Positions 12,412 to 48,783 of a DNA stretch of 64,000 nt are shown in pieces; positions within the stretch are counted from its first letter, which is position 1, and the number at the start of each line of letters is the position of its first letter. Origin of the DNA: Brasenia schreberi (taxonomy: Eukaryota; Streptophyta; Magnoliopsida; Nymphaeales; Cabombaceae). A program made the translations under genes and the position numbers. The stretch covers positions 23,108,501-23,172,500 of the forward strand of contig JAYKKT010000089.1 in assembly GCA_036023115.1 (NCBI GenBank), written 5' to 3'. The notes under the pieces were generated by a model. It worked only from the letters and a program-made list of their open reading frames with translations. It was not told the origin of the DNA and did not search any database.

Positions 12412-12527
12412 GCTAGTTTACTCAAACCAGCAAAGTTGATTTTGACTTCGTGTAGCGATTATGGGTAAGTGAATTTTTTTTGACATAGGCCTTCTTGAAC
12501 CGATAGGGTCAACCTAGATACTTTGAA
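12412..12527 (-). other. Conserved U5 two-stem-loop module, copy in J 3' LTR
   Basis: Stem-loop 2 (12412-12431) reads GCTGGTTT-GAGT-AAACTAGC on the minus strand, paired throughout with one G-U. Stem-loop 1 (about 12485-12527) keeps outer TAGG/CCTA, but its inner 5' arm has lost bases (CCCTATCGG). Confidence 0.6.
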
Positions 12528-20522: not shown

Positions 20523-20634
20523 TTAGGCTGACTCTTGAGCATCGGTTCAAGAAGGCCTAAAGAAAAAAGATCTCTCTTAGCCACAATCGCCCAAAAGTCG
20601 GATTTGCAAAACTTTGCTAGTTTTGGAAATTAGC
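20523..20634 (+). other. Conserved U5 two-stem-loop module, copy in LTR K
   Basis: Stem-loop 1 (20523-20560) has outer TTAGGC/GCCTAA and inner CTTGA/TCAAG around GCATCGGT. Stem-loop 2 (20616-20634) is GCTAGTTT-TGG-AAATTAGC with one G-U pair, followed by TGGCACGCTC. Confidence 0.75.
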
Positions 20635-21127: not shown

Positions 21128-21435
21128 TGTATATGTGAATTTTTATTCCAAAGCCTATGTAGAGACTTGAAATTAAATTCTCAAACTACGTCGTGTGCGC
21201 AAGCATGTCAGCTAGTTTGCTCAAACTAGCAAAGTTTATTTTCTGACTTCATGTAGCGATTATGGGTAAGTGAATTCTTTTCAATGTAAGCCTTCTTGAA
21301 CTGATATTCAAGGGTCAACCTAGATGCTTTGAAAATCATTTGAGATCCGGTAAGTTTTCAAAACCAAATTTCAAATTCCAAAATTTGATAAGAATCATGA
21401 TTTTATTTCTTAACTCAAAAACATTCCAAGTATTG
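21128..21435 (-). mobile_element. Element J, 5' LTR (only the last ~310 bp)
   Basis: On the minus strand it ends ...TTCACATATACA at 21128, directly before the PBS. It aligns with J's own 3' LTR at 12329-12610 up to AACTCAAAAACATTC, then the match stops at about 21435. The rest of the LTR is lost; plastid DNA begins 54 bp further on. Confidence 0.85.
21211..21324 (-). other. Conserved U5 two-stem-loop module, copy in J 5' LTR
   Basis: Stem-loop 2 (21211-21230) reads GCTAGTTT-GAGC-AAACTAGC, a perfect stem. Stem-loop 1 (about 21289-21324) keeps inner CTTGA/TCAAG; the outer stem is eroded. Confidence 0.65.
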
Positions 21436-26880: not shown

Positions 26881-27138
26881 GCCTAGCTCACATCATCATC
26901 TAAAAAACCCAAAACTATTTGTGCATCTTTGCATTCGTTAGCTTTTCGAAAGCGTCTTGAATCTACGCACAAACCACGTTGGAAATAGGCCACTTGTGCA
27001 CACATATCAGGCCTAAATAGCTAAAAACTCTCAAGACTTAGGTTCGTCCAAAGTCACAATAAAACTTGTAAACTAGGCATATATCGAGTTTTTCAAACAC
27101 TGATCTTGCAAAGTTTTGTAAAAACGAAGTTTTAAGTG

Positions 27139-27258
27139 TTTAAACTGACCCTTGAGCATCGGTTCAAGAAGGTTTAAATGAAAAGATCCTGCTTTCCTAT
27201 AATTGCCAAAAGAAGTCAGAATATTTTCAAAAATCTTCGCTAGCTTAAGCAAGCTAGC
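27139..27258 (+). other. Conserved U5 two-stem-loop module, copy in LTR F
   Basis: Stem-loop 1 (27139-27178) has outer TTTAAAC/GTTTAAA and inner CTTGA/TCAAG around GCATCGGT. Stem-loop 2 (27239-27258) is GCTAGCTT-AAGC-AAGCTAGC, followed by TGGCATGCC. Confidence 0.8.
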
Positions 27259-27450: not shown

Positions 27451-28500
27451 AGGAAGGTTTTGCCCACTGCCCACCACCAGTCGCACATCGTCTTCCACCT
27501 TCCACCACAGGTTTATCTTCTCTTACTGATCTCATAATCTTTAAGGACTTGTAATTAAGGAGCCTAAGTCTCCATGAAGATGTATTGATTAAAATTCCCA
27601 AACTATGCCCATTTTTCTTTCATGCGGTCTCCGATACATATTTTCATATTGATTCTTTCAACCCCATTGCTCAACTTATGATCATGAACCTCTTTATTTC
27701 CCCAAGTTCACAGGATTCTTAGGGTTTGGACTGTTGTTTTATAGCTATAGGTCGCTTTAATGAAAGCTAGAACACACACTTTTGTTGAAAATCTAAAATT
27801 TCCAGATTACACTCTGCACAAGTCTGATCACAGATTTATCTATAATTATTTGCTGCTCCAAACAAGTCACGATTTGTCTCATCCAATCTAGACATATACA
27901 CGGACATTGGATAAAATTTTCAAGATTTTAGGCTTTATTAAACATTGTTAATTAAATTTGAAAAATTTACAAAAAACATAATAGGTTCTGGAAAGTTAGA
28001 AACTTCTGTGACATATGTCTGCTATTTCTTGAATATCTCTGTGCATACTGCATCAAATCAAGTGAAAATGATCTCTTTGGAAAGATTACATCCACCTTTC
28101 CAACAAGACCAATTGTATAAAACTTGAAGGTCTGAGTACCAAAATATCGTAATTTTTCTAAACCTTTAATGTTTTGGTACAGATCTGTTATGAGTGCCTC
28201 AATGATGTGTAGTTCTAGATTTAACTATGATGATATGTATTAAAATCCAAAATAAAAATATCTTCTAATTATGTAATGCATGTCTACCTTCTGTAAAATT
28301 TTCAGAATTTTTAAAAACTCAGAAGTATTTTTGAAAAATCAGGGAACAGGTCTCTAAAAAAACAATCAGTTTATGTTTTTCAGAACCTGAAATTTTCAAA
28401 GCCAAGAACTAAATCACGATTTCCTCAAACTTTCAAATTGGGATTTTATTTTTCGAAATTTAATGGATTTCAAATAATTTTCCAAGCGTCTAGGCTTACC

Positions 28501-28603
28501 CTTGAGCATCGGTTCAAGAAGGCTTGTATCGATAAGAGCTCACTTGTTCACAATCGTTTAATGAAGTCAGAAATCGAATCTTTGTTAGTTTGAGTAAACT
28601 AAC
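28501..28603 (+). other. Conserved U5 two-stem-loop module, copy in E
   Basis: The inner stem of loop 1 is CTTGA/TCAAG (28501-28518). Stem-loop 2 (28584-28603) is GTTAGTTT-GAGT-AAACTAAC, fully paired, with two pairs exchanged relative to A; TGGCACGCTC follows. Confidence 0.75.
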
Positions 28604-29289: not shown

Positions 29290-29660
29290 TTTTTGGATCC
29301 TCGTAAAGGCGTCGAAAAAATATGAATTCTCACACTGTAAAAAAGAAACAATTCTATTTTTACAGAACTAAATATGGTTTGGTAAAGTGAAATCGATGCC
29401 CTTTTAAAAAGGTAGTTTTGAGTTGAAATTGTTTTGGGAAAACTTCGGATTCTAAAATCACTATTTCTAAACGTCTAGGGTAACTCTTGAGTGTTGGTTT
29501 AAAAAGGCTTATATCGACAAGAACCTACTTTCCCATAATCACCGAATAGTCAGATAAATCTCTTTGTAAGTTTGAGTAAACTTCTTGACACAATCACATA
29601 TGATTCTTGCATGGAAAGTTTTAAGTCCATATGAGACTGAAAAAATTTGTTTATAAAATG
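29290..29660 (+). mobile_element. Decayed LTR tail after E gag
   Basis: It resembles the last part of the E and K LTRs: an AATTCTATTTTTACAGAACTA-like segment, then AACGTCTAGGGTAACTCTTG, AAAAAGGCTTATATCGAC, and GTAAGTTTGAGTAAACTTC, a worn stem-loop 2. This suggests E lost everything from gag to the middle of its 3' LTR. The exact end is unclear; 29661-29827 holds nothing I recognise. Confidence 0.5.
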
Positions 29661-30392: not shown

Positions 30393-30905
30393 TGTAAACC
30401 ACGAAAATTCTCACTTCTAGCTTTTGAGGCCTGAAATGAACCTTCTCGTGCCTATGTCGCTTTTAAAAAGGGGCATGCCAGCTAGCTTGCTCAAGCTAGC
30501 GAAGTTTTTTGAAATATATGATGTTTTGAAAGGCGATTGTGAGCAAGCGGTATCTTTTCGCTTAAAACCTTCTTGAACCGGTGCTCAAGGGTCAGTTTAA
30601 GCGCTTAGAAAACTTTTGATCTAAACAAATGTATACTTTTGAAAGAAAAGTAAGTGTTTCGATGATTGTATGCCTAAATTGCAGTTTTTATTATGGGGGT
30701 TGACGATTCCAAGTCTTTGAGCTTTTAAGATTTTTAGGCCGGATGTGTGTACTTCAAGTGGCCTAATTTCAGCGAGTTTGAGCATAGATTTAGGGTTTCC
30801 TCTTTGAAAATGTGCGAATGCAAGGATGCACGAATTCTTTTTGGGTTTGATATGACGATGTGAGCTAAGCTCGAATTGAAAGCAACTCATACAACTTAAT
30901 GTAAA
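30393..30905 (-). mobile_element. Solo LTR C (minus strand), 3' end part, TSD GATAC
   Basis: On the minus strand the LTR ends ...TTTTCGTGGTTTACA at 30393. GATAC at 30388-30392 pairs with GATAC at 63061-63065 beyond its other end, proving that the pieces at 30393-30905 and 60287-63060 are one LTR of about 3.29 kb split by element A. It contains the stem-loop module (30481-30602) and the start of the tandem-repeat zone. Confidence 0.93.
30481..30602 (-). other. Conserved U5 two-stem-loop module, copy in LTR C
   Basis: Stem-loop 2 (30481-30500) is GCTAGCTT-GAGC-AAGCTAGC. Stem-loop 1 (about 30560-30602) has outer GCTTAAAC/GTTTTAAGC with one bulge and inner CTTGA/TCAAG around GCACCGGT. Confidence 0.75.
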
Positions 30906-32111
30906 TGTAAACACCCCGAAATCCCACGAATTTCTTAAACGAATCTGGTTTTATACAAGCAGCCCCCAAAGGGCCATTTTGAGTTTGGAAACCCAGGAGC
31001 CTTCCAAACAACCCTGTACATATGTTTTAAACTTTATCTTTCTAAAACATATAATATGGCTTTTGAAAACCCTTTTAAAACACGTTTTGAAACCCCGAAG
31101 TGGCCCGATCAAGACAGGACCAGGAGAGCCAAGAAGAGCCCGGAACCGGAGCACATGTCAAGCCCGGCACAGCAACTCTTGTATCTGATTCACACCCCAG
31201 GATCTCGAACGTCCAAGACCCTGTTCTTACCAAAATAGCATTTGAAGTCATCTCCAGAAGGCAGAAACGGAGGCGGACGACTATGTTGGCGAAGACCCAA
31301 CGCAGACGGAGTACTGATGCTGTCAGGCCCCGCACAAATCGTCCGTCTCGAACCCAGCTCGAAGGAGTCAGAGTTCAGTTTGGATTGGATCTGGACCATA
31401 TATATCCAGATTCCAATCCAAACCCATATGGGGACTTGGATTTGGATTTGGATCCAGAGATCCAATCCAATATCCATATCCATGGCCCACATCACCTTCT
31501 CATAAATGGAGGTGGGGCCCACTTGAAATTCATGTGGGATATTGGGCATGAGAGAGAGTGGGGTTGAAAAATATCAAGAGTGTTGTATTAAGCTTGACTT
31601 GTGTGTCAAGTTTGGGTTAATCATGTGGGTTAGCCTAATTGAGTGGGTTTAAGCTTGTAATTAGCTAAAACCTAACCTAGGGCTGCACTAACATGGGGTG
31701 ATCAAGGTCTATGGGCCATGCTAAGGGAGCTCCTTCACCTAAACCTAGCCTAAACCCCTAATCCACCCCTAATCTGAACCTAATCACCAAACCCACTTCC
31801 CTAATACCGGCCTAATCCCAACCTAATCACCTAACCCACTTCCCTAATCCTTCCCTAAACCTAGATTAATTTCCCTAATCCTAGCCTAAACCTAGCCTAA
31901 TCACCTAACCTAGCTCACTAAACCTCACCCTAAAACCCAACCACCTAACCTAGCCCTAAACCCCTAAACCACCCTTAGCCCACGATTTATCCAAACACCT
32001 AGTTTTAAAATATCTGGCCCAACCCCATCCAGCCCACCTTATCTACATACCACCCTACCTAAACCACCTAACCACTACCCACAGCCCAGCCCTAACCGAC
32101 CTACCCATCCC

Positions 32112-32120
32112 CTATTTAAA
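32112..32120 (+). promoter_or_regulatory. TATA box of element A 5' LTR
   Basis: CTATTTAAA at the 3' edge of the CCTAA block, followed by CCCCCCTCATTGTGGGCGGG, whose C and G runs can pair. This is the presumed promoter of the genomic RNA. Confidence 0.65.
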
Positions 32121-32876
32121 CCCCCCTCATTGTGGGCGGGTTTTCTAAGTGGGAACCACCCTTCGATCCAGCCGGGCCCTCTCCTTCTCCCATCTCTCAT
32201 CCAGCCGTGACCACCCCCCAGCAGCTCCACCAGCCGCCACCTGCTCCGCCACCTTCCCTCTTCCGTCCACCACCACCACCCCTCAGCCGGACGCCATCAT
32301 CTTCCCCCAACCGACAGCCACCTGCCCGCCACTTTCCCACTCCAGCCGCCACTTCTCCCCATTCGGTAAGTACCCCAAACTCCCTCAAAGCCCCTCTCTA
32401 CCACCTCTCCACTCTTAGCCACCCATCTTCCCTTCAGCTCAGCCCCTTTGCCGCCACCACCTAAACCTAGCCGAACCTAGGATAACCCAAGTTGTTGGCC
32501 ACTACTTAGCCACCATCTCCCATTCGGCCAACCCCCCCCCCTAGGTGTCCTATTTGGCCTTCCCACTAGCTCACCTTTTAGGTCCAGTTTCCCTAAGTAC
32601 CCAACTTCCCTAGTGATCCTAATACCCATTTGTTCAGCCACTCTAAACTCCCTACTTGGAGGCGCCACCTACTTGCCACCGGCCCCCTTCGAGGCGTCTA
32701 TCCCGCGCCCCATTTGCAGCCGGCCAGCACCCTTGATCACCTACCTTCGCGGAGCTCCCACTTGCAGCCCAAGGCCAAGCCTACGCTCAAGCAAGACCTC
32801 TACGGACCAGCTACTCGTAAGTGTCTAAACTCGGTCTTTAGTCGTACACTTACTTGAGATTCAATTTGATACGGGG

Positions 32877-32916
32877 TTGTAATAACGGAGCATAGTCTCC
32901 CCCCGCTTGTAATAAC
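32877..32916 (+). other. TTGTAATAA-flanked GGAG/CTCC hairpin
   Basis: TTGTAATAAC, then GGAG-CATAGT-CTCC, then a second TTGTAATAAC. Equivalents lie at 1071-1110, 10031-10070, 19548-19585, 26124-26162, 27549-27573, 44140-44179, 47364-47403, 58772-58811, and on the minus strand at about 13288-13312 and 61103-61141. Candidate polyadenylation or RNA-structure element. Confidence 0.6.
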
Positions 32917-33053
32917 GTGGCTTGGCACAACCACACACGTGCACTCTCTTAGTCGTGCACAATTTTGAACACACACGGGCCTAATCAGCCCCTAATATAT
33001 AAGTGTATATATACTTTCATTTTCGAAGGGTTTTGTTTAAGTTGGGTGCGTTG

Positions 33054-33560
33054 TCTTTCAATTCAAGCACTCTCACACACATTGAGCTTTCGCTCTTATT
33101 TGAAAGACCCAAGTAAGGGCCGACCTATACTATTTGGGTTTCATTTCTTGTCGTGTGAGTAAGTCTTTCAATTCAAACACTCTCACACACATTGAGCTTT
33201 CGCTCTTATTTGAAAGACCCAAGTAAGGGCCGACCTATACTATTTGGGTTTCATTTCTTGTCGTGTGAGTAAGTCTTTCAATTCAAGCACTCTCACACAC
33301 ATTGAGCTTTCGCTCTTATTTGAAAGACCCAAGTAAGGGCCGACCTATACTATTTGGGTTTCATTTCTTGTTGTGTGAGTAAGTCTTTCAATTCAAGCAC
33401 TTTCACACACATTGAGCCTTCGCTCTTACTCCCAAGACCTTAGTCAAGGCCATACTGCAATTTATATTTGGGTTTAATTTCATGTCGTGTGTGTAAGTCT
33501 TTCAATTCAAGCACGCACCCACATTGAGCCTTCACTCTTATTTGCAAGACCCGAGTAAGG
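33054..33560 (+). repeat. 110-bp tandem repeats in A 5' LTR
   Basis: TCTTTCAATTCAA starts at 33054, 33164, 33274 and 33384 (exact period 110), then 33498 (period 114). Each unit carries ATTGAGC(T/C)TTCGCTCTTA. Nearly identical units point to recent homogenisation. Confidence 0.95.
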
Positions 33561-33589
33561 GCTCATATACATAAGATATATACATATCT

Positions 33590-33665
33590 CCCTTCGGTTA
33601 TTTCCCTTCGGTTATTTCCCTTCGGTTATTTCCCTTCGGTTATTTCCCTTCTGTTATTTCCCTTC
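33590..33665 (+). repeat. 14-bp tandem repeats
   Basis: CCCTTCGGTTATTT is repeated about five times, the last copies varied (CCCTTCTGTTATTT, CCCTTCAGTATTGT). The same array occurs in the A 3' LTR and both B LTRs. Confidence 0.9.
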
Positions 33666-33965
33666 AGTATTGTCTTTACATTTCGGGTTTTCCCTTTGGA
33701 GTAGCGTGAGTTTGCATTGCATCTACGCCATACCACGAGGTAGGACGCATATTGCATCGAAGCAAGCCCCGCTCGAATTCGCCCATGTAGTGGAGTGTTC
33801 ATAACACACAAACTAGGCGACCCAAGAAGGGATAAAAGAAAAGACTTAGGCACGTGCAAATCCACGTGATCTAAAACATGCAATCGCATCTTAAAGACCC
33901 GAAATAAGATACCTCGAACCGTTTCGTAGACTTTCTCCCCAAAACTCGATTTTTGCAAAAGCGTA

Positions 33966-34084
33966 CAGACTGACCCTTGCGCATCGGTGCAAGAAGGTCT
34001 GCGACGACAAGAGCTCACTTGCTCACAGTCGCCACGTTTAGAAGTCAGTGTTAAATATATCTTCGCTAGCTTAAGTAAGCTAGC
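33966..34084 (+). other. Conserved U5 two-stem-loop module, element A 5' LTR
   Basis: Stem-loop 1 (33966-34001) has outer CAGAC/GTCTG and inner CTTGC/GCAAG around GCATCGGT. A further GCGAC/GTCGC stem with inner GAGC/GCTC spans 34001-34032. Stem-loop 2 (34065-34084) is GCTAGCTT-AAGT-AAGCTAGC. TGGCACGCCC (34085-34094) follows, identical to the first ten bases of the PBS. Confidence 0.85.
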
Positions 34085-34187
34085 TGGCACGCCCTATTTG
34101 TATACATAGGCCTTAGACGCACGATAAGATCCACTCCAAGCCACAAAAGAGGCGAAGAGGCGGGGATTTTCGCGCGTCTACAGAGAT

Positions 34188-34205
34188 TGGCACGCCCGGT
34201 GGGAC
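34188..34205 (+). other. Primer-binding site of element A
   Basis: TGGCACGCCCGGTGGGAC starts five bases after the LTR end (GAGAT between). Its position and TGG start fit a tRNA-primed minus-strand site. I cannot assign the tRNA. Confidence 0.8.
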
Positions 34206-34323
34206 GTGAGCCTTTTCAAAAATCGAGTTTACTTGTAGAAATCTTGCGAAAATTTTATAAAGGTGTCGTTTTAACTTGTTTTCTTTGCTTTTACTTAGGA
34301 AATTTTGAAAAAGCTTGAAAAGC

Positions 34324-37194
34324 ATGTCAAAATCCAATCCAAGTGAAGTGTCGAGCCAAGGCTCATGCGCATCAAGTTCTCACTCTAGGAGGATTTTCAA
34401 AAACAAAATAAAACTAGATGAAATCGAGGACTTGAGAAGGGAATTTGAGGCCAAAATCGATGCTCTCAGCCAAGAGGCTGAAGTAGGCGATTCATGTTCA
34501 TCAAACGGTGAACAAAGGCCTAAAAAGAAAATTGAAAAACCTCGCAAGCAAAAAGAGGCCTCCGTAATGGAAGGCAACCAATACCACGAGTCCTTCACAC
34601 AAAAGGACCGTAAAGCCCTACAGCAGCTGCTGAAAGGGCAAAATAAAGAGAAAAGAAGCTACGCCCTGTCTGATTTCCTTCCTATGGATTACGAAACAGA
34701 CAGTGACGATGAAATACCGAACTTCCATCGGTATGATGGCATGGGAGACCCTAGGTCTCACTTGCAGCTTTTCTCACGTCGAGCCCATAAGAAGAAAAAG
34801 GACTCGATGAAATGGGTGTATTGGTTCCCCCTATCCCTTAAGGGCACAGCTGCCAAATGGCTGGCTTCCTACGACTTAAGCCAGTTCGCTACTTTTGAAG
34901 AATTAGCGAACTGCTTCATGCAAAGATTTGCACACAACGTGGAAGTCACGCCAACCCTGAATACCTTAAGGGATACAAAGCAAGGCATGAACGAAGACGT
35001 GCATGCCTTCATTATAAGGTGGAGGTCTCTTTTGGGCCAAGTACAAGAGCCTATATCCGAAGGATGCGCAGTAATGCTCATCCTGGATAATTTCAAAAGC
35101 GAGTTAAAAACCCTTCTCTCGCTCCATGAGATTTCAACTTTCCATAAGTTGATCAAAAAGGCCTCCCTTTTCGAAACCAACTTGCGAAAAGGGACATACG
35201 ACCACTTATGGAAAGGAAGTGCCGTTCCCAAAACACGTGTGGACAAACCCATCGCATATGGGCTGCCCACAACGGACAAAGGGGCAAAGCCCCATAAAAT
35301 CGCCAATGTCCGGGTGGATCCAGGCATGGCAGGCACTTCTAAAAATTTTGAAAAAATAGAAAATAAGAGAGAACGCAATTTTTCAAAACCAATTGAAAAA
35401 CGGGAGTACACTCCGCTGGGGCAACCTGTGTCGGAGGTCCTAGACCTCTTACTTGCCCAAGGCATGATCGAACTCCCTGAAATCCCCGAAGGAGTCACGT
35501 CCAAAGGGGGGTATTTAAACCGATTTTGCAAGTATCATCGGCTCAAAGGCCATGATACCAAACGGTGCTTCTCTCTTCTAAATAAAATTGAGAACTTGAT
35601 AGCGGAGGGCCGGCTCCAGGTCACTGCGGAACCCGAGCCACCTCAAGCTATCTTCAAGGAACCCTTTCCCAAACACGCCAGTGGCAGTGGGAAAGGAAAG
35701 GAGGTATGTACCCTCACCATTTCCAAGGAACTAGTGCGAAAGCCCGAACCTGGTCGACCTGCTTGTGCGCCCATCCTTGTATTATACAAGAGGCCCGCCC
35801 AAGTCGTCATTCGGGGACCACCAAAAGTGGAAACCCCGACAAGACCAGTTTTGAAAATCCAAGGTTCTCCTCAGCTCATCCTTAGAGCCAAGTTTAGCGC
35901 GAACCCTAGGCTGGTCGTGGGGGAAGTCACTAGATCCGGGAGGATCTACCAACCCCCGCACCTTCAAGGTGCTCAAAAGGTGGTCAGTGTGCCTGGCCCC
36001 TCAAAAGCATGTATCCCTAGTGGTCTGCCAAAAGCAGATAAGGACAAAATCATCCTAAATCCTTATGATTTCGAAAACCACCTTTCAAAGATTCCTATTC
36101 ACATGTCTATCCTAGAGCTTATCAAAACCTCGCCTAGGCATAGACTTGTCTTAGAGAAAATTCTAGAAAGGGCCAAGGTTGATTCGAACATAAGTCCGGA
36201 ATCCTTGTCTGCCCAAGTGGCTTTATTAGGAGCAAAATCGCCCATCACCTTTTCGGAAGATGATGTAGATAGACCCTACGAAACCCATAACCAGGCCCTG
36301 CATATCGAGGTGGTTCTAAACAACCACTCTCTGGACAAGTGCCTAGTCGATGGTGGAGGAGGGCTCAACATCCTTCCACTTCATGTGGCGTACAAAATCG
36401 GAGTCACCTTGACTTCAGTGAACCCAAGCCCCATCGTTATCACTGGATACGATGGGAATGCGTCTAGGCCTTTAGGATCCATCGAACTCCCAATGGAAAC
36501 GGGAGGGATCGAACACACGGGGGTGTTCCATGTCTTGGACATCCACCCCCATTATAACCTGTTGCTGGGAAGACCCTGGATACACAGTTTGTGCGCTGTG
36601 CCATCCACCTTCCACAAGTGTGTCAAGATCCCTTTTAGGGACCAAGTCGTAGTGATCCTAGGTGAGAGTCACCCACAGCTTCAGGGGATCATAAACTCCC
36701 CTTGTTTATCGAGCTCCCAGGCCCATGAGGCTAACATGGGGCAAATTATGGTTGAGCCACCTCGGCTCGTGTTGAACAACCCTAGGAAGGTTGTATGTGT
36801 GAAGGGGCCGCCCAAAGCAGGCCCCCTCCCGACTCTAATCCTCCTAGGAAAACCCAAGCGTTCCCTATTTCCAAAACCCCTGGACAAAAGGCCATACGAG
36901 CCTAATATGGACGATAGCATGTTCCAGGACCACGACTTGTATCCCATCTTTTCAAAAAACAAAAGGTCGTGGAACATGTTATTGAACATGGGCTACACGC
37001 CCTACAAGAGTCTAGGGGCACAAAACCAGGGTCTCCTAGAGCCCATCCTTCCTAGGGCCAACCCAAGACGATATGGGATCGGCTATACTCCCCGAATACC
37101 GCCGGAGCCACCCCCTGTGACCACCTGGGTCAAGGGTGCCCCGGAGCCTGTCTTAGAAGAAACCTATGGTTTAGACCTCCTGTTCCGAGTCTAA
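34324..37194 (+). CDS. Gag-protease polyprotein of element A
   Basis: 956 aa, intact. I start at the ATG at 34324; the open frame extends three codons further to a TTG. It makes the capsid and the processing protease of the virus-like particle, in the cytoplasm. Residues ~30-60 are charged and coiled-coil-like. The capsid domain lies at ~145-265 (FPLSLKGTAAKWLA, FEELANCFMQRFAHN, FIIRWRSLLGQV). A CKYHRLKGHDTKRC motif at 402-415 replaces the usual CCHC knuckle, as in other Tat-type Gags. The aspartic protease begins LVDGGGGLNILP with catalytic D676 and closes at YNLLLGRPWIHS (G749). A long linker at ~440-620 is proline/lysine-rich. It is followed by a stop, a 113-bp gap and pol in another frame. 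Element B encodes an almost identical protein with about 14 changes. Confidence 0.95.
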   Translation: MSKSNPSEVSSQGSCASSSHSRRIFKNKIKLDEIEDLRREFEAKIDALSQEAEVGDSCSSNGEQRPKKKIEKPRKQKEASVMEGNQYHESFTQKDRKALQQLLKGQNKEKRSYALSDFLPMDYETDSDDEIPNFHRYDGMGDPRSHLQLFSRRAHKKKKDSMKWVYWFPLSLKGTAAKWLASYDLSQFATFEELANCFMQRFAHNVEVTPTLNTLRDTKQGMNEDVHAFIIRWRSLLGQVQEPISEGCAVMLILDNFKSELKTLLSLHEISTFHKLIKKASLFETNLRKGTYDHLWKGSAVPKTRVDKPIAYGLPTTDKGAKPHKIANVRVDPGMAGTSKNFEKIENKRERNFSKPIEKREYTPLGQPVSEVLDLLLAQGMIELPEIPEGVTSKGGYLNRFCKYHRLKGHDTKRCFSLLNKIENLIAEGRLQVTAEPEPPQAIFKEPFPKHASGSGKGKEVCTLTISKELVRKPEPGRPACAPILVLYKRPAQVVIRGPPKVETPTRPVLKIQGSPQLILRAKFSANPRLVVGEVTRSGRIYQPPHLQGAQKVVSVPGPSKACIPSGLPKADKDKIILNPYDFENHLSKIPIHMSILELIKTSPRHRLVLEKILERAKVDSNISPESLSAQVALLGAKSPITFSEDDVDRPYETHNQALHIEVVLNNHSLDKCLVDGGGGLNILPLHVAYKIGVTLTSVNPSPIVITGYDGNASRPLGSIELPMETGGIEHTGVFHVLDIHPHYNLLLGRPWIHSLCAVPSTFHKCVKIPFRDQVVVILGESHPQLQGIINSPCLSSSQAHEANMGQIMVEPPRLVLNNPRKVVCVKGPPKAGPLPTLILLGKPKRSLFPKPLDKRPYEPNMDDSMFQDHDLYPIFSKNKRSWNMLLNMGYTPYKSLGAQNQGLLEPILPRANPRRYGIGYTPRIPPEPPPVTTWVKGAPEPVLEETYGLDLLFRV

Positions 37195-37307: not shown

Positions 37308-40300
37308 ATGGAAAAACAAAAACTCGAAAAAAGTGTGCTTTGTATAGTTCCCAAAGTTCTTATTTTACAAAAACCCAAAAAAATCGAAAATTTGGAAAAT
37401 ACCAAAAAGATTTTGTACATAGCCGCTCCTGGTAGGACTTTGGCGAAAGAAAAGGATTTCGAAAGAAACGTCGTCTGCATAGCCAGACCAAAAATTTCGA
37501 AATCACTTGAAAATCCAAGTACAAAACCAGGTTATTTTGAAAATCACGCATCAAGTTCCCTCGGGTCTATAGCCCACGAGAATGATCAAAGCCTAGAAGT
37601 GGATCCCCTTGAGGAAGATCCCACTTCTGAGCTCCCAGAATTTCATAGAATTCTCGATTTTGAAAGACCTTCCCAATCAGTAGGAGGAGATTTCATAGAG
37701 GTGAACCTAGGGGATGATTCCAATCCAAAAACCATCAAAATAGGCGCATGCTTGCATAAAACTGAAAAGTTAGCATTCATTGCATTTCTACGAACCTATT
37801 TAGATGTGTTTGCATGGACGTATGAAGACATGCCGGGCATAGATCCCAGCATAGTCGAGCATCGTCTTCCCTTAGGTGTAGGTGTAAAACCAATAAAGCA
37901 GAAGCTTAGGAAAATACACCCGAATGTACACACGCAAGTCAAAGAGGGTTTAGAAGATCTGCTAAAAGCCGGATTTATAAAACCCATTGTGTATTCTGAT
38001 TGGTTGTCAAATATCGTTGTAGTTCGAAAAACCAATGGGAAAATTCGAATATGCATCGATTTCAGAAACCTGAATAAAGCCACTCCAAAGGATAATTATC
38101 CTTTACCAAACATAGATTTGATAGTCGATAGTACTGCAAATCATGAAATGTTTTCATTCATGGATGGTTATTCAGGCTATAATCAAATCAAACTAAGCCC
38201 ACGAGATCAGGGTAAGACCGCCTTCACAACCCCATGGGGCACGTACTGCTATACAGTCATGCCCTTTGGTTTGAAAAATGCCGGCGCAACATACCAACGA
38301 GCCATGAACACGATCTTCCATGATCAAATTCACGAGCTTGTAGAAGTGTATGTAGATGATCTCTTGGCAAAATCCAAAACCCGATGCACCCATATCGAAT
38401 GTTTACAAAAAATTTTCGAAAGGCTTAGGCTTTACAAAGTAAAGCTAAACCCTCAAAAATGTGTGTTCGGGGTAGAATCAGGAAAGCTTCTAGGCTTTAT
38501 GGTGAGCCAAAGGGGAATAGAAGTCGACCCCTCTAAGTGTCGAGCCATCATAGACATGGCTCCACCCTCCAATCTCACCCAAGTCCGTAGCCTCCAAGGC
38601 CGATTACAATCTGTGCGCCGATTCATATCAAATCTGGCAACTAGATGCGAACCCTTCAACAAACTGTTGAGGAAGGGTACGAAATTCTTATGGGATGACG
38701 AATGCCAAAAGTCCTTCGAGAGACTAAAGGCATACTTGGTTAATCCCCCCGTTTTGAATCCTCCAAAACAAGGAAAACCGCTTTTATTATACATCTCCGT
38801 GCATGTAAACGCTTTAGGAGCCCTGTTGGCTCAATACGAGGATGACACCCATAAGGAGTATGCCATCTACTATATTTCAAAAACTCTCTTGGCTTATGAA
38901 CGAAATTATCAAGCCATGGAGAAGACGTGCTTGGCCCTAGTTTGGGCCTGCCAGAGATTCAGACACTACTTCCTAGATCATGAGATCTGGATAGTGTCCA
39001 AGCTTGACCCTATCAAGCACTTGTTCGAAAAACCCATTCTCACGGGTAGATTGGGCAAATGGCAACTCCTTCTAATGGAGTATGATCTAAAATACCATCA
39101 CCAGATCTCCGTTAAGGGGCAAGCCCTAGCAGATTACGTGGCTGACTTCCCCTTGGAGGACGCATATCCCACTCTTGTCGAAATGCCTGATGAAGGCATA
39201 TTGCAAAACCATTTTCAAAACCACATTTTGGCAAATTCTTTCGAAAACCAAGTGTGGAAGATGCACTTCGACGGGGCACGAAACCAACGAGGGGCTGGTG
39301 CCGGGATCATCCTAATCTCCCCTCAAAAGGGCGAGATTCCCATAGCAGTCCGCTTAGATTTTGAATGTTCCAACAACGTAGCTGAGTATGAAGCACTCAT
39401 ACAAGGCTTGAGGATTTCGAAAACTCTAGGGGCATCATGCATCGAGGTCATTGGAGATTCGCTCCTTGTCATAAACCAGGTTTTAAAAATTTGGCAAGTA
39501 CGTAATGAGAAACTACTTCCATATCACGAGTTGGCCACTCGATTGGTCCAATCCTTCCAATCATGTAAGCTCACACACGTAGGAAGAGAGGACAATGGCA
39601 TTGCCGATGCCCTCTCCTCCTTGGGTTCAGCCCTGAAGGTCGATCCCATTTCAGGGACCAGATCTTTGGAAATATGGCATGTGCCCCATCCATCCACACA
39701 CGACTTGGATATTTGCCAAAACAACCCAGAGTCTATTGAAAAACCCTGGTTCTATGACATAAAACATTTTTTAGAAAATGGGGGATTCACCGAGGATGCC
39801 ACATCCAAAGATAGGGCATTCATTCGTAAGATTTCGACCCGATACACCATTCTGGGTGGGGTCTTATACAAAAAGAGTTTTACCGGCATTCTGCTTAGGT
39901 GTATCGACCTAGAGGAGGCTAGGATAGTAATGCATGAATTCCACGATGGAGAATGTGGAGGTCATGTTAATGCCAACATGATGGCAATGAAAATACTTAG
40001 AGGGGGTTATTTTTGGTCCACCCTGAAAAAGGATTGTCACGATCATGTTAGGAAGTGTCATCCATGTCAAGTGCATGGGCACGCCATTCATATCCCTTCA
40101 TCTGCATTGCATTCCGTGGTCAGCCCCTGGCCATTTACCATGTGGGCGTTTGACATTGTAGGCCCCATATTTCCAAAGGCCTCGAATGGGCATCGTTTTA
40201 TTTTAGCAGCCACGGAGTATTTCTCCAAGTGGGTGGAAGCCATTTCCCTAACGAATGTAATGGGGCAACATGTGGTGGCTTTCATCCGGAGGAATATCTT

Positions 40301-40994
40301 GGCTCGATTTGGGGTTCCACGAGACCTTGTGTCTGATAATGGTACCCCATTCAAGAACGAGCGGATGGTTAAGTTGTGCAACACGTATGGCATAACTCAC
40401 CACTTCTCCTCGCCCTACTACCCTCAAGGCAACGGCCAAGCCGAAGCCACAAACAAGACTCTCATTGGTATCATTGAGAAGACCTTAGAGAAGGGTAGGA
40501 GGTGGCATGAGAAGCTGGATGAAGCCTTATGGGCTTATAGGACTTCCATCCGGACTCCCACGAATGCCACACCATTCGAATTGGTCTATGGCACAAACGC
40601 CATTCTTCCCATTCATACCCAACTGCATTCATTCCATACATCCATTGCACTCGACCTCCCCCTAGAGACGCTTCAGCATGCTAGGATGGCCGAGCTAGAT
40701 TTGCTAGATGAGAGGCGACTCCTTGCCATGGATCATGCTCGTGCATACCGGCAGAGGATAGCCCGACATTATAGCAAACACATGAGACCTCGCCACTTTG
40801 AAGTGGGAGATTTAGTCTTAAAAACCATCCACCATCGTGGCCCACACCCCCTAGGCAAGTGGCGCCCCAACTGGGATGGACCCTATGTTGTACGAGCAAC
40901 CACTACGAACAATTCGTATTGGTTGATCGATGTAGAAGGTAGGAATTTAGCAGATCCTATCAATATTCAATACTTAAAGAAGTATCATGTGTAG
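37308..40994 (+). CDS. Pol polyprotein of element A (RT, two RNase H domains, integrase)
   Basis: 1228 aa, intact, ATG at 37308. It copies the RNA to DNA and integrates it. Residues 1-150 are lysine-rich with no domain. RT is at ~190-370 with YVDDL at 348-352. The first RNase H (~460-600) is degenerate: YISVHVNALGALLAQ stands where a catalytic Asp (TDAS) is expected. The second, archaeal-type RNase H (~650-775) has D655, E695, D717 and D767 in place. The integrase has a zinc finger H879/H886/C917/C920, the core D949-D1010-E1046 (exactly DD35E), and the GPY/F module WDGPYVV near the end. There is no chromodomain. The dual RNase H is a known mark of the plant Tat group. Its frame differs from gag-pro, so expression needs splicing, re-initiation or another device. 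Confidence 0.96.
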   Translation: MEKQKLEKSVLCIVPKVLILQKPKKIENLENTKKILYIAAPGRTLAKEKDFERNVVCIARPKISKSLENPSTKPGYFENHASSSLGSIAHENDQSLEVDPLEEDPTSELPEFHRILDFERPSQSVGGDFIEVNLGDDSNPKTIKIGACLHKTEKLAFIAFLRTYLDVFAWTYEDMPGIDPSIVEHRLPLGVGVKPIKQKLRKIHPNVHTQVKEGLEDLLKAGFIKPIVYSDWLSNIVVVRKTNGKIRICIDFRNLNKATPKDNYPLPNIDLIVDSTANHEMFSFMDGYSGYNQIKLSPRDQGKTAFTTPWGTYCYTVMPFGLKNAGATYQRAMNTIFHDQIHELVEVYVDDLLAKSKTRCTHIECLQKIFERLRLYKVKLNPQKCVFGVESGKLLGFMVSQRGIEVDPSKCRAIIDMAPPSNLTQVRSLQGRLQSVRRFISNLATRCEPFNKLLRKGTKFLWDDECQKSFERLKAYLVNPPVLNPPKQGKPLLLYISVHVNALGALLAQYEDDTHKEYAIYYISKTLLAYERNYQAMEKTCLALVWACQRFRHYFLDHEIWIVSKLDPIKHLFEKPILTGRLGKWQLLLMEYDLKYHHQISVKGQALADYVADFPLEDAYPTLVEMPDEGILQNHFQNHILANSFENQVWKMHFDGARNQRGAGAGIILISPQKGEIPIAVRLDFECSNNVAEYEALIQGLRISKTLGASCIEVIGDSLLVINQVLKIWQVRNEKLLPYHELATRLVQSFQSCKLTHVGREDNGIADALSSLGSALKVDPISGTRSLEIWHVPHPSTHDLDICQNNPESIEKPWFYDIKHFLENGGFTEDATSKDRAFIRKISTRYTILGGVLYKKSFTGILLRCIDLEEARIVMHEFHDGECGGHVNANMMAMKILRGGYFWSTLKKDCHDHVRKCHPCQVHGHAIHIPSSALHSVVSPWPFTMWAFDIVGPIFPKASNGHRFILAATEYFSKWVEAISLTNVMGQHVVAFIRRNILARFGVPRDLVSDNGTPFKNERMVKLCNTYGITHHFSSPYYPQGNGQAEATNKTLIGIIEKTLEKGRRWHEKLDEALWAYRTSIRTPTNATPFELVYGTNAILPIHTQLHSFHTSIALDLPLETLQHARMAELDLLDERRLLAMDHARAYRQRIARHYSKHMRPRHFEVGDLVLKTIHHRGPHPLGKWRPNWDGPYVVRATTTNNSYWLIDVEGRNLADPINIQYLKKYHV

Positions 40995-43383: not shown

Positions 43384-45228
43384 CCCCCCTCATTGTGGGC
43401 GGGTTTTCTAAGTGGGAACCACCCTTCGATCCAGCCGGGCCCTCTCCTTCTCCCATCTCTCATCCAGCCGTGACCACCCCCCAGCAGCTCCACCAGCCGC
43501 CACCTGCTCCGCCACCTTCCCTCTTCCGTCCACCACCACCACCCCTCAGCCGGACGCCATCATCTTCCCCCAACCGACAGCCACCTGCCCGCCACTTTCC
43601 CACTCCAGCCGCCACTTCTCCCCATTCGGTAAGTACCCCAAACTCCCTCAAAGCCCCTCTCTACCACCTCTCCACTCTTAGCCACCCATCTTCCCTTCAG
43701 CTCAGCCCCTTTGCCGCCACCACCTAAACCTAGCCGAACCTAGGATAACCCAAGTTGCTGGCCACTACTTAGCCACCATCTCCCATTCGGCCAACCCCCC
43801 CCCCTAGGTGTCCTATTTGGCCTTCCCACTAGCTCACCTTTTAGGTCCAGTTTCCCTAAGTACCCAACTTCCCTAGTGATCCTAATACCCATTTGTTCAG
43901 CCACTCTAAACTCCCTACTTGGAGGCGCCACCTACTTGCCACCGGCCCCCTTCGAGGCGTCTATCCCGCGCCCCATTTGCAGCCGGCCAGCACCCTTGAT
44001 CACCTACCTTCGCGGAGCTCCCACTTGCAGCCCAAGGCCAAGCCTACGCTCAAGCAAGACCTCTACGGACCAACTACTCGTAAGTGTCTAAACTCGGTCT
44101 TTAGTCGTACACTTGCTTGAGATTCAATTTGATACGGGGTTGTAATAATGGAGCATAGTCTCCCCCCGCTTGTAATAACGTGGCTTGGCACAACCACACA
44201 CGTGCACTCTCTTAGTCGTGCACAATTTTGAACACACACGGGCCTAATCAGCCCCTAATATATAAGTGTATATATACTTTCATTTTCGAAGGGTTTTGTT
44301 TAAGTTGGGTGCGTTGTCTTTCAATTCAAGCACTCTCACACACATTGAGCTTTCGCTCTTATTTGAAAGACCCAAGTAAGGGCCGACCTATACTATTTGG
44401 GTTTCATTTCTTGTCGTGTGAGTAAGTCTTTCAATTCAAACACTCTCACACACATTGAGCTTTCGCTCTTATTTGAAAGACCCAAGTAAGGGCCGACCTA
44501 TACTATTTGGGTTTCATTTCTTGTCGTGTGAGTAAGTCTTTCAATTCAAGCACTCTCACACACATTGAGCTTTCGCTCTTATTTGAAAGACCCAAGTAAG
44601 GGCCGACCTATACTATTTGGGTTTCATTTCTTGTTGTGTGAGTAAGTCTTTCAATTCAAGCACTTTCACACACATTGAGCCTTCGCTCTTACTCCCAAGA
44701 CCTTAGTCAAGGCCATACTGCAATTTATATTTGGGTTTAATTTCATGTCGTGTGTGTAAGTCTTTCAATTCAAGCACGCACCCACATTGAGCCTTCGCTC
44801 TTATTTGCAAGACCCGAGTAAGGGCTCATATACATAAGATATATACATATCTCCCTTCGGTTATTTCCCTTCGGTTATTTCCCTTCGGTTATTTCCCTTC
44901 GGTTATTTCCCTTCTGTTATTTCCCTTCAGTATTGTCTTTACATTTCGGGTTTTCCCTTTGGAGTAGCGTGAGTTTGCATTGCATCTACGCCATACCACG
45001 AGGTAGGACGCATATTGCATCGAAGCAAGCCCCGCTCGAATTCGCCCATGTAGTGGAGTGTTCATAACACACAAACTAGGCGACCCAAGAAGGGATAAAA
45101 GAAAAGACTTAGGCACGTGCAAATCCACGTGATCTAAAACATGCAATCGCATCTTAAAGACCCGAAATAAGATACCTCGAACCGTTTCGTAGACTTTCTC
45201 CCCAAAACTCGATTTTTGCAAAAGCGTA

Positions 45229-45347
45229 CAGACTGACCCTTGCGCATCGGTGCAAGAAGGTCTGCGACGACAAGAGCTCACTTGCTCACAGTCGCCACGT
45301 TTAGAAGTCAGTGTTAAATATATCTTCGCTAGCTTAAGTAAGCTAGC
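45229..45347 (+). other. Conserved U5 two-stem-loop module, element A 3' LTR
   Basis: Identical to the 5' LTR copy: stem-loop 1 at 45229-45264, stem-loop 2 at 45328-45347. Element B lies nine bases beyond stem-loop 2. Confidence 0.85.
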
Positions 45348-46586
45348 TGGCACGCCTGTAAACACCCCGAAATCCCACGAATTTCTTAAACGAATCTGGT
45401 TTTATACAAGCAGCCCCAAAGGGCCATTTTGAGTTTGGAAACCCAGGAGCCTTCCAAACAACCCTGTATATATGTTTTAAACTTTATCTTTCAAAAACAT
45501 ATGATATAGCTTTTGAAAACCCTTTTAAAACATGTTTTGAAACCCCGAAGTGGCTTGGCCCGATCAAGACAAGACCAAGAGAGCCAAGAAGAGCCCGGAA
45601 CCGGAGCACCTGTCGAGCCCGGCGCAACAACTCTTGTATCTGATTCACACCCCAGGATCTCGAACGTCCAAGACCCTGTTCTTATCAAAATAGCATTTGA
45701 AGTCATCTCCCGAAGGCAGAAACGGAGGCGGACGACTATGTTGGCGAAGACCCAACGCAGACGGAGTACTGATGATGTCAGGCCCCGCACAAATCGTCCG
45801 TCTCGAACCCAGCTCGAAGGAGTCAGAGTTCAGTTTGGATTGGATCTGGACCATATATATCCAGATTCCAATCCAAACCCATATGTGGACTTGGATTCAG
45901 ATTTGGATCCAGAGATCCAATCCAATATCCCTATCCATGGCCCACATCACCTTCTCATAAAGGGAGGTGGGGCCCACTTGAAATTCACGTGGGATATTGG
46001 GCATGAGAGAGAGTGGGGGTGAAAAATATCAAGAGTGTTGTATTAAGCTTGACTTGTGTGTCAAGTTTGGGTTAATCATGTGGGTTAGCCTAATTGAGTG
46101 GGTTTAAGCTTGTAATTAGCTAAAACCTAACCTAGGGCTGCACCAACATGGGGTGATCAAGGTCTATGGGCCATGCTAAGGGAGCTCCTTCACCTAAACC
46201 TAACCCAAAATGCCTAAACCTAGCCTAAACCCCTAATCCACCCCTAATCTGAACCTAATCACCTAACCCACTTCCCTAATCCCGGCCTAATCCCAACCTA
46301 ATCACCTAACCCACTCCCCTAATCCTTCCCTAAACCTAGATTAATTCCCCTAATCCTAGCCTAAACCTAGCCTAATCACCTAACCTAGCTCACTAAACCT
46401 CACCCTAAAACCCAACCACCTAACCTAGCCCTAAACCCCTAAACCACCCTTAGCCCACGATTTACCCAAACCCCTAGTTTTAAAATATCTGGCCCAACCC
46501 CATCCAGCCCACCTTATCTACATACTACCCTACCTAAACCACCTAACCACTACCCACAACCCAGCCCTAACCGACCTACCCATCCC

Positions 46587-46595
46587 CTATTTAAA
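46587..46595 (+). promoter_or_regulatory. TATA box of element B 5' LTR
   Basis: CTATTTAAA followed by the C-run/G-run inverted repeat, as in A. Confidence 0.65.
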
Positions 46596-48561
46596 CCCCC
46601 CTCATTGTGGGCGGGTTTTCTAAGTGGAAACCACCTCTCCATCCAGCCGGGCCCTCTCCTTCTCCCATCTTCCATCCAGCCGTGACCACTCCCCAGCAGC
46701 TCCACCTGCTCCACCAGCCGCCACCTGCTCCGCCACCTTCCCTCTTCCGTCCACCACCACTGCCCCCCAGCCGAACGCCACCATCCTTCCCCAACTCCAC
46801 CAGCCGACAGCCACCTGCCCGCCACTCTTCCACTCCATCCGCCACTTCTCCCCATTCGGTAAGTACCCCAAACTCCCTCAAAGCCCCTCTCTACCACCTC
46901 TCCACTCTTAGCCACCCATCTTCCCTTCAGCTCAGCCCCTTGCCGCCACCACCTAAGCCTAGCCGAACCTAGGATAACCCAAGTGGCTGGCCACTACTTA
47001 GCCACCATCTCCCATTCGGCCAACCCCCTAGGTGTCCTCTTTGGCCTTCCCACTAGCTCACCTTTTAGGTCCAGTTTCCCTAAGTACCTAACTTCCCTAG
47101 TGACCCTAAGACCCACTTATTCAGCCACTCTAAACTCCCTACTTGGAGGCGCCACCTACTTGCCACCGGCCACCTTCGAGGCGCCTATCCCGCGCCCCAC
47201 TTGCAGCCGGCCAGCACCCTTGATCACATACCTTCGCGGAGCTCCCGTTTGCAGCCCAAAGCCAAGGCCACGCTCAAGCAAGACCTCTACGGACCAGCTA
47301 CTCGTAAGTGTCTAAACTCGGTCTTTAGTCATACACTTGCTTGAAATTCAATTTGATACGGGGTTGTAATAACGGAGCATAGTCTCCCCCCGCTTGTAAT
47401 AACGTGGCTTGGCACAACCACACACGTGCACTCTCTTAGTCGTGCACAATTTTGAACACACACGGGCCTAATCAGCCCCTAATATATAAGTGTATATATA
47501 CTTTCATTTTCGAAGGGTTTTGTTTAAGTTGGGTGCGTTGTCTTTCAATTCAAGCACTCTCACACACATTGAGCTTTCGCTCTTATTTGAAAGACCCAAG
47601 TAAGGGCCGACCTATACTATTTGGGTTTCATTTCTAGTCGTGTGAGTAAGTCTTTCAATTCAAGCACTCTCACACACATTGAGCTTTCGCTCTTATTTGA
47701 AAGACCCAAGTAAGGGCCGACCTATACTATTTGGGTTTCATTTCTGGTCGTGTGAGTAAGTCTTTCAATTCAAGCACTCTCACACACATTGAGCTTTCGC
47801 TCTTATTTGAAAGACCCAAGTAAGGGCCGACCTATACTATTTGGGTTTCATTTCTTGTCGTGTGAGTAAGTCTTTCAATTCAAGCACTTTCACACACATT
47901 GAGCCTTCGCTCTTACTCCCAAGACCTTAGTAAAGGCCTTATTGCAGTTATATTTGGGTTTCATTTATGTCGTGTGTGTAGTACTTCAATTCAAGCACTC
48001 TCACACACATTGAGCCTTCGCTCTTACTCCCAAGACCTTAGTCAAGGCCATACTGCAATTTATATTTCGGTTTAATTTCATGTCGTGTGTGTAAGTCTTT
48101 CAATTCAAGCACGCACCCACATTGAGCCTTCGCTCTTATTTGCAAGACCCGAGTAAGGGCTCATATACATAAGATATATATATATCTCCCTTCGGTTATT
48201 TCCCTTCGGTTATTTCCCTTCGGTTATTTCCCTTCGGTTATTTCCCTTCCGTTATTTCCCTTCAGTATTGTCTTTACATTTCGGGTTTTCCCTTTGGAGT
48301 AGCGTGAGTTTGCATTGCATCTACGCCATACCACGAGGTAGGACGCATATTGCATCGAAGCAACCCCGCTCGAATTCGCCCATGTAGTGGAGTGTTCATA
48401 ACACACAAACTAGGCGACCCAAAAAGGGATAAAAGAAAAGACTTAGGCACGTGCAAATCCACGTGATCTAAAACATGCAATCGCATCTTAAAGACCCGAA
48501 ATAGACACCTCGAACCGTCTCGTAGACTTTCTCCCCAAAACTCGATTTTTGCAAAAGCGTA

Positions 48562-48680
48562 CAGACTGACCCTTGCGCATCGGTGCAAGAAGGTCTGCGA
48601 CGACAAGAGCTCACTTGCTCACAGTCGCCACGTTTAGAAGTCAGTATTAAAAATATCTTCGCTAGCTTAAGTAAGCTAGC
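48562..48680 (+). other. Conserved U5 two-stem-loop module, element B 5' LTR
   Basis: Stem-loop 1 at 48562-48597 and stem-loop 2 at 48661-48680, with the same stems as in A; TGGCACGCCC follows. Confidence 0.85.
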
Positions 48681-48783
48681 TGGCACGCCCTATTCGTATA
48701 CATAGGCCTTAGACGCACGATAAGATCCACTCCAAGCCACGAAAGAGGCGAAGAGGCGGGGATTTTCGCGCGTCTATAGAGAT

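What the first reader, a model, noticed from the sequence alone, without database searches (positions are those of the whole stretch)
33966..34001. Covarying stem-loop 1 in U5, shared by all LTR families in the window
Thirteen LTR 3' regions carry a hairpin with invariant parts (GACCCTTG, loop GCATCGG or close, CAAGAAGG) and stems that change in a paired way. Inner stem: CTTGC/GCAAG (1-2338 LTR, M, A, B) versus CTTGA/TCAAG (F, K, E, C, G, J 5'). Outer stem: CAGAC/GTCTG (A), TTTAAAC/GTTTAAA (F), TTAGGC/GCCTAA (K), GCTTAAAC/GTTTTAAGC (C). Paired change with a conserved loop is the signature of a selected RNA structure. It lies about 190 nt before the PBS in the RNA leader, where dimerisation, packaging or translation signals would sit. 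I know of no described element matching it, but I could not search.
Basis: partly seen in the sequence, partly recalled or inferred. Interest (0 to 1): 0.88.

Follow-up and report, generated by a model that had tools for sequence, protein, structure and literature searches.

The report
Covarying RNA hairpin in retrotransposon leaders
A genome that is likely a plant's holds more than 25,000 copies of a short hairpin-forming sequence; in the stretch studied it lies near the ends of the terminal repeats of mobile elements and its two halves have changed together, so the folded RNA is likely needed by the element and is predicted to mark the element's own RNA for packaging and copying.

Summary
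Thirteen LTR copies (a model search adds a weak fourteenth) carry the hairpin, SL1: a 7-bp inner stem with a tetraloop, a NACY/AA internal loop and a 6-9 bp outer stem. In 10 distinct window rows, changes on both sides of a pair (12 cells) exceed all of 2000 tree-aware simulations under each of two trees. A home-made R-scape-style test on 44 divergent copies from the same genome ranks an SL1 pair first of 12,880; three of 13 SL1 pairs have E<0.05 given the structure. G.U pairs outnumber A.C (28 to 2 cells, SL1 plus SL2), which points to sense-strand RNA rather than a DNA palindrome. The core pattern occurs 25,763 times in the genome against 9 for its reversed control. Rfam has no match. SL1 lies about 1.85 kb after an inferred TATA box and 186 nt before the PBS of Tat-type (Ogre/Retand-like) Ty3/gypsy elements, followed by a second hairpin, a 10-nt repeat of the PBS and a third hairpin beside the PBS. 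Function is inferred: most likely a genomic-RNA packaging signal, less likely support of reverse-transcription start. A new member of a known kind.

The parts
33966..34001 (+). SL1 of element A, 5' LTR: outer stem 33966-33971/33996-34001, internal loop 33972-33975/33994-33995, inner stem 33976-33982/33987-33993, tetraloop 33983-33986
   Evidence: MFE -16.2 kcal/mol, z -3.47, 0 of 200 shuffles as stable
33962..34006 (+). weak lower extension of SL1 (33962-33964 with 34004-34006)
   Evidence: RNAalifold; 80% of cells paired, tree null not clearly exceeded
2121..2174 (+). SL1 copy N
   Evidence: 77.7 bits
11085..11138 (+). SL1 copy M
20516..20569 (+). SL1 copy K
21277..21330 (-). SL1 copy J (weak fold)
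27133..27185 (+). SL1 copy F
28483..28536 (+). SL1 copy E
29468..29521 (+). SL1 copy D (decayed; its best fold is not SL1)
30554..30607 (-). SL1 copy C (solo LTR, split by element A)
   Evidence: TSD GTATC read
45221..45274 (+). SL1, element A 3' LTR
48554..48607 (+). SL1, element B 5' LTR
59963..60016 (+). SL1, element B 3' LTR
63606..63659 (-). SL1 copy G
12476..12524 (-). possible 14th, degenerate SL1 copy
   Evidence: 35.1 bits, E 5.4e-7
34065..34084 (+). SL2: 8-bp stem GCTAGCTT/AAGCTAGC with 4-nt loop
   Evidence: 98.9% of 88 cells paired, 3 of 8 pairs changed on both sides; z -2.25
34085..34094 (+). TGGCACGCCC: repeat of the first 10 nt of the PBS inside the LTR
   Evidence: shared word of 10, reached by 2 of 2000 mononucleotide shuffles; in 86 genome rows exact in 47, within one mismatch in 73
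34114..34180 (+). SL3: hairpin pairing U5 with the LTR terminus, next to the PBS (U5-IR-like position)
   Evidence: -27.5 kcal/mol, z -4.71, 1 of 200 shuffles as stable
34188..34205 (+). primer binding site TGGCACGCCCGGTGGGAC
30906..34182 (+). 5' LTR of element A
45357..48778 (+). 5' LTR of element B; B lies in the 3' LTR of A with the target duplication ACGCC at 45352-45356 and 60188-60192
32112..32124 (+). TATA-like CTATTTAAACCCC; TATA-like variants at the homologous places 335 and 9007
   Evidence: promoter role inferred
32817..32822 (+). candidate splice donor GTAAGT; GTAAG identical in 6 of 6 LTRs aligned
   Evidence: splicing not tested; GTAAGT occurs 63 times in the window (about 31 expected)
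34284..34299 (+). candidate splice acceptor TTTGCTTTTACTTAG|G, 25 nt before the gag ATG (34324)
   Evidence: splicing not tested
34315..37194 (+). gag-pro ORF of element A
   Evidence: Ty3_capsid, Retrotrans_gag, G-patch
37308..40994 (+). RT-RH-second RNase H-integrase ORF of element A

Best explanation
SL1 is a predicted sense-strand RNA hairpin in the likely U5 part of the leader of Tat-type LTR retrotransposons; its stem pairs covary, so selection likely keeps the fold, and it likely works as a recognition site on the genomic RNA that the element's Gag binds to pack that RNA into its particles. Shown: the sequence, its many copies, covariation above a tree-aware null, the G.U excess, and its place 186 nt before the PBS in a tail that holds two further predicted hairpins. 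Inferred: that the stretch is transcribed from the TATA box about 1.85 kb upstream, that it lies in U5, that Gag rather than the reverse transcriptase or a host protein binds it, and that the near-constant internal loop (NACY/AA) with its neighbouring wobble pair, rather than the variable tetraloop, is what is recognised. A conserved GTAAG donor upstream and acceptor-like sites before gag would let splicing remove SL1, SL2, SL3 and the PBS from translated RNA, so that only unspliced RNA would carry the signal; this step is untested.
For: Covariation: 12 cells with changes on both sides against 1.2-1.3 expected, 0 of 2000 tree-aware simulations under each of two trees; inner pair ranks 1 of 12,880 column pairs (E 0.01, that is 1 exceedance in 100 simulations), outer pairs 12-41 and 11-42 have E 0.025 and 0.049 given the structure (44 rows). 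RNA rather than DNA: 28 G.U against 2 A.C cells, in 10 and 2 pairs, SL1 plus SL2 of the window rows; in 86 genome rows, two constant wobble columns left out, 23 to 10 in SL1 and 31 to 7 in SL2; the sense strand folds better in 10 of 11 rows. Two near-constant wobbles: U.G next to the internal loop in 9 of 10 and G.U in the inner stem in 8 of 10 window rows. Position: SL1 precedes SL2 in all 13 window copies aligned, SL2 being decayed in D. Abundance 25,763 to 9. Element type. In Ty1, Ty3 and HIV-1 the sequences for primer annealing, dimerisation and packaging sit in the structured 5' end (PMC11381356, passages); in barley BARE, packaged and translated RNAs are distinct pools (PMC3735527, passages).
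Against: No expression, probing or binding data. Only 3 of 13 SL1 pairs are singly significant; 4 inner pairs cannot vary because the search pattern fixed them. No single SL2 pair is significant. Some measures do not stand out: pairs changed on both sides 35 of 500 and further pair types 437 of 500 column shuffles. In a sliding scan of the leader SL1 is not among the 15 windows with lowest z of 128. Of 10 distinct window rows D does not form SL1, J does so weakly, and M and C prefer a partly different outer pairing. For Ty3, packaging needs both UTRs and POL and is not precisely mapped (passages). The splice sites are sequence matches only, GTAAGT is common in the window, and J shows no clear acceptor. 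In 24 of 145 copies the 5' side was lost or differed, 20 of these among copies fetched by a pattern that favours such changes.
Confidence: 0.42

Rival explanations
1. SL1 is part of the reverse-transcription start complex: with SL2, the PBS-like decamer and SL3 it places or presents the primer tRNA, as U5-IR stems do in retroviruses.
For: Likely U5 position; SL3 pairs the LTR end beside the PBS; TGGCACGCCC repeats the first 10 nt of the PBS between SL2 and SL3 and is kept within one mismatch in 73 of 86 rows. A U5-IR-like structure was required in the self-primed Tf1 (Lin and Levin 1998, title seen in a reference list only; the paper is not held).
Against: SL1 is 186 nt from the PBS, and SL3, not SL1, sits in the U5-IR place. 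A closing helix that would join SL1 and SL2 in one domain found no covariation support.
Confidence: 0.25
2. SL1 acts in RNA processing or translation of the long leader: splicing control, nuclear export, or ribosome passage over about 2 kb of leader.
For: About 2.2 kb from the TATA-like site to the gag ATG; GTAAG donor kept in 6 of 6 LTRs and acceptor-like sites before gag in A and E.
Against: SL1 lies about 1.1 kb after the donor and about 300 nt before the acceptor; no transcript data; no Rfam family matches.
Confidence: 0.18
3. SL1 is a DNA-level inverted repeat (protein-dimer site or cruciform) and the paired changes follow from palindrome symmetry.
For: It is an imperfect inverted repeat in DNA; two CACGTG boxes lie about 100 nt upstream; N2135 folds better on the antisense strand; A.C cells are not absent (17 in 86 rows).
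Against: G.U against A.C asymmetry, near-constant wobble pairs, an asymmetric internal loop, and better sense-strand folding in 10 of 11 rows (in D that fold is not SL1).
Confidence: 0.06
4. The paired changes are inherited differences between a few LTR families with no structural selection.
For: About five lineages in the window by my grouping; pair 23-32 could be one or two events; 3 of 13 pairs significant; tree support partly weak.
Against: Tree-aware nulls: 0 of 2000 under each of two trees and rank 1 of 12,880; inner and outer stems change independently, for example L079 (A-U inner, CAGACT outer), L026 (A-U inner, CAAACT/GGTTTG outer) and L032 (G-C in the inner and C-G in the outer stem, types not in the window).
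Confidence: 0.06

Closest known systems
Packaging and dimerisation hairpins of retroelement leaders (Ty1, Ty3, retroviruses)
   Same: cis-acting hairpins in the 5' end of the genomic RNA
   Different: SL1 is predicted, lies in the likely U5 before the PBS, has a variable non-palindromic tetraloop, and has no binding or packaging data
Retroviral U5-IR stem-loop and the U5-IR-like structure of Tf1
   Same: U5 stem-loop upstream of the PBS (description recalled)
   Different: SL1 is 186 nt away; SL3 has the U5-IR position
Ogre/Retand (Tat clade) Ty3/gypsy retrotransposons
   Same: second RNase H between RT-RH and integrase; two ORFs
   Different: the clade survey does not use the word 'stem-loop' (PMC6317226, passages and term counts)
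BARE (barley copia element) with separate translated and packaged RNA pools
   Same: a model for packaged RNA as a separate, unspliced pool (PMC3735527, passages)
   Different: copia superfamily; pools differ by promoter, cap and poly(A), and the spliced intron there knocks out pol expression rather than removing a leader

Membership tests
Tat clade (Ogre/Retand) LTR retrotransposon (the host element) | second (archaeal-type) RNase H between RH and integrase | tested here: met
   RVT_3 after RT_RNaseH and before rve (five pieces searched apart); Pfam does not name it archaeal
Tat clade (Ogre/Retand) LTR retrotransposon (the host element) | two ORFs, gag-pro and pol, with a gap (reported for Ogre, mean 274 bp) | tested here: met
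   ORFs 34315-37194 and 37308-40994, 113 nt apart; a protease domain was not matched by Pfam in the pieces searched
Tat clade (Ogre/Retand) LTR retrotransposon (the host element) | PBS type and primer tRNA | not tested
   PBS read; the tRNA was not identified
U5-IR stem-loop | stem-loop directly next to the PBS | tested here: not met
   186 nt between SL1 and PBS; SL3 meets it instead
U5-IR stem-loop | needed for reverse-transcription start | not testable with these tools
   needs an assay
Kissing-loop dimerisation hairpin | palindromic apical loop of about 6 nt (recalled) | tested here: not met
   tetraloops AUCG, ACCG, AUCA, ACUA, GUUG; predicted homodimer gains 3.6 kcal/mol for SL1 and 7.4 for SL2 over two monomers
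Packaging signal | binds Gag and directs RNA into particles | not testable with these tools
   inferred from position and conservation only
Hammerhead ribozyme (as in retrozyme LTRs) | Rfam hammerhead match | tested here: not met
   no Rfam match at gathering score in the window, none to E 10 in 33800-34400
Any Rfam 15 family | match at the gathering score | tested here: not met
   0 matches

The most novel reading that the evidence does not exclude
The last 220 nt of the LTR are a modular RNA control domain of Tat retrotransposons: SL1 as Gag recognition site, SL2 with a second, decoy primer site (the first 10 nt of the PBS) for tRNA capture, and SL3 as initiation stem; a leader intron with conserved splice sites would remove the whole domain together with the PBS from translated RNA, so splicing would sort messenger from genome in one of the most abundant element groups of plants.
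Probability: 0.12. Interest if true: 0.78.

Novelty: new member of a known kind. Interest (0 to 1): 0.5.

Why it matters
Tat elements make up large parts of many plant genomes (recalled), yet a 2025 review of the plant LTR-retrotransposon life cycle holds none of the terms 'packaging signal', 'stem-loop' or 'dimeriz' (PMC12786077, term counts and passages). A hairpin with tens of thousands of copies and tested covariation gives a concrete, small RNA on which genomic-RNA recognition in this group can be tried, and a structural marker that could be used to trace such leaders across species.

Tried and rejected
Closing helix AAGCGU/ACGCC joining SL1 and SL2 into one multibranch domain: 74.5% of 55 cells paired but no excess over shuffles (75 of 500 reach it; covariation score 232 of 500); rejected. 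Viral contigs: 2 matches to a loose SL1 pattern, both without the LTR surroundings and apparently in coding DNA by reading; rejected. Hammerhead/retrozyme: no Rfam match. C and G as the two LTRs of one non-autonomous element: rejected, since C is a solo LTR with its own 5-bp duplication GTATC. Compensation for rare pyrimidines at outer column 12: 110 copies genome-wide, about 100 of them listed, none with a purine at column 41 by my reading; several are insertion junctions and the rest look like private mutations, so this test gave no support. G or T at inner column 23: 1,219 copies, nearly all listed ones U.G with G kept, one listed as U-A; the C lies in a CpG, so deamination explains the excess and I do not use it as evidence. 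One search used a pattern with one base missing by my mistake (0 matches); the busy searches had the same fault. The lower stem of SL1 is weak. A search for further families with A at column 23 did not complete. Shared-word paper search for the PBS decamer gave 14 papers, none on a retrotransposon PBS by title and abstract start.

Full report
What is there. At 33966-34001 lies a hairpin with an outer stem of 6 pairs, a 4-by-2 internal loop, an inner stem of 7 pairs and a tetraloop; MFE -16.2 kcal/mol, z -3.47. Thirteen copies were found in the window by a search with up to 7 mismatches, 10 distinct at the hairpin; a covariance model adds a weak 14th. Of 10 distinct rows folded alone, 7 have z of -2.7 or lower, E -2.36, J -1.36 and D -0.02; M and C prefer a partly different outer pairing.

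Covariation in the window. On 10 distinct rows 96.2% of 130 cells pair; 4 of 13 pairs and 12 cells have changes on both sides. Column shuffles reach the cell count in 0 of 500 and the covariation score in 0 of 500, but the number of pairs in 35 of 500 and the number of extra pair types in 437 of 500, so not every measure stands out. With substitutions placed on the tree (2000 simulations under each of two trees), both-side cells reach 12 in none (maximum 9), the covariation score in none, pairs with such changes in 7 and 6, and pairing percentage in 5 and 5. SL2 alone gives 17 and 15 of 2000 for both-side cells; SL1 and SL2 together 0 of 2000 on all four measures under both trees. The lower stem of SL1 is weaker.

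Covariation in the genome. The window lies in a genome of 1,055,133,615 bases. The core pattern has 12,815 and 12,948 matches on the two strands, the reversed control 7 and 2. From 60 loci with flanks, 60 short stretches and the window, the strict pattern with flanks gives 145 copies, 139 distinct over 249 nt since some places were fetched twice; 24 were dropped because the 5' anchor was lost or differed, leaving 121, 94 distinct at the hairpin. Copies brought in by the column-12 pattern were left out of the main test: 90 copies from 74 loci and the window remain, 86 distinct over 184 nt; 4 of the 24 dropped belong to this set. My own imitation of R-scape (G-test with average-product correction against simulated nulls) gave: all 86, inner pair 23-32 rank 1 of 15,051, E 0.033 from 60 simulations; 44 rows under 90% identity, rank 1 of 12,880, E 0.01 from 100 simulations, and outer pairs 12-41 and 11-42 with E 0.025 and 0.049 when only the 21 structural pairs count. 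With all 121 copies (116 distinct, 50 kept) the same inner pair is first, 11-42 has 0.030, 9-44 has 0.046 and 12-41, which is biased there, 0.11. No single SL2 pair reaches 0.05 in either run. The sample is mostly from one contig, and four inner pairs and the CAAGAAGG letters were fixed by the search pattern, so they could not show change.

RNA rather than DNA. SL1 and SL2 of the window rows together hold 176 Watson-Crick, 28 G.U, 2 A.C and 4 other cells; on the opposite strand each G.U would be A.C. In the 86 genome rows, leaving out the two constant wobble columns, SL1 has 23 G.U to 10 A.C and SL2 31 to 7: the excess is smaller there but holds. The sense strand has the lower folding energy in 10 of 11 rows; N is the exception, and in D the fold is not SL1. 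The column next to the internal loop is U.G in 9 of 10 and the sixth inner pair G.U in 8 of 10 window rows.

Surroundings. LTR A spans 30906-34182, with a copy from 42169 cut at 45356 by element B, which is flanked by the 5-bp duplication ACGCC. A TATA-like box at 32112 has TATA-like counterparts at homologous places at 335 and 9007, so SL1 would lie about 1.85 kb into the transcript; this is inferred. Between SL1 and the PBS are SL2 (34065-34084), a 10-nt repeat of the PBS start (34085-34094; 2 of 2000 shuffles) and SL3 (34114-34180; z -4.71), whose 3' arm is next to the LTR end. SL3-like folds that reach the LTR end appear in A, B, K, F, G and J of the 10 stretches folded; in N, M, E and C the best fold differed (C keeps the inner part), although the two arms alone can pair, weakly in E.

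Element type. Five pieces of the two ORFs match Ty3 capsid/gag, G-patch, RVT_1, two kinds of RNase H model and integrase. A second RNase H between RH and integrase is the layout given for Ogre and Retand, found in angiosperms (PMC6317226, passages). The host is therefore likely an angiosperm; it was not identified.

Mechanism. I commit to a genomic-RNA recognition hairpin, most likely for Gag. Reasons: the fold and the internal loop are kept while the tetraloop drifts, it lies in the likely leader of full-length RNA, and it sits apart from the PBS-adjacent stem that would serve reverse transcription. A donor GTAAG conserved in 6 of 6 LTRs whose upstream side diverges, and acceptor-like sites before gag in A and E but not clearly in J, suggest that messenger and genome could be sorted by splicing. 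Everything in this paragraph after the fold is inference.

Literature. Searches (listings) and passages of PMC6317226, PMC3735527, PMC4974528, PMC11381356, PMC12786077 and PMC3485330 showed no description of this hairpin. The library lacks most subscription papers, so this is weak evidence of novelty.

Verdict. A covarying, likely selected RNA structure, new in detail, of a kind known from other retroelements; function inferred, not shown.

Noticed in passing
34085-34094 and 34188-34197: The LTR repeats the first 10 nt of the PBS (TGGCACGCCC) right after SL2; exact in 47 and within one mismatch in 73 of 86 genome rows.
   Followed up: partly
34114-34180: Third hairpin pairing U5 with the LTR terminus; its arms differ widely between families yet can pair, weakly in E and J.
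   Followed up: partly
32817-32822 and 34284-34299: Candidate leader intron: GTAAG donor identical in A, B, M, N, F and C; acceptor-like site just before gag in A and E.
   Followed up: partly
about 32905-33534 and the homologous places in M, A 3' and B: 110-bp tandem repeats in the likely transcribed part of the LTR.
   Followed up: no
about 32870-32920: Block conserved in 6 LTRs with TTGTAATAA and a second TGTAATA motif; it could be the polyadenylation signal and so mark the R/U5 border.
   Followed up: no
33851-33868: Two CACGTG boxes 6 nt apart in the likely leader; windows around them fold stably (z -4.08 and -2.94).
   Followed up: no
about 36973-37086: G-patch domain at the end of the gag-pro ORF.
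   Followed up: no
45352-45357 and 60188-60192: Element B inserted within the PBS-like decamer of element A's 3' LTR (target duplication ACGCC).
   Followed up: no
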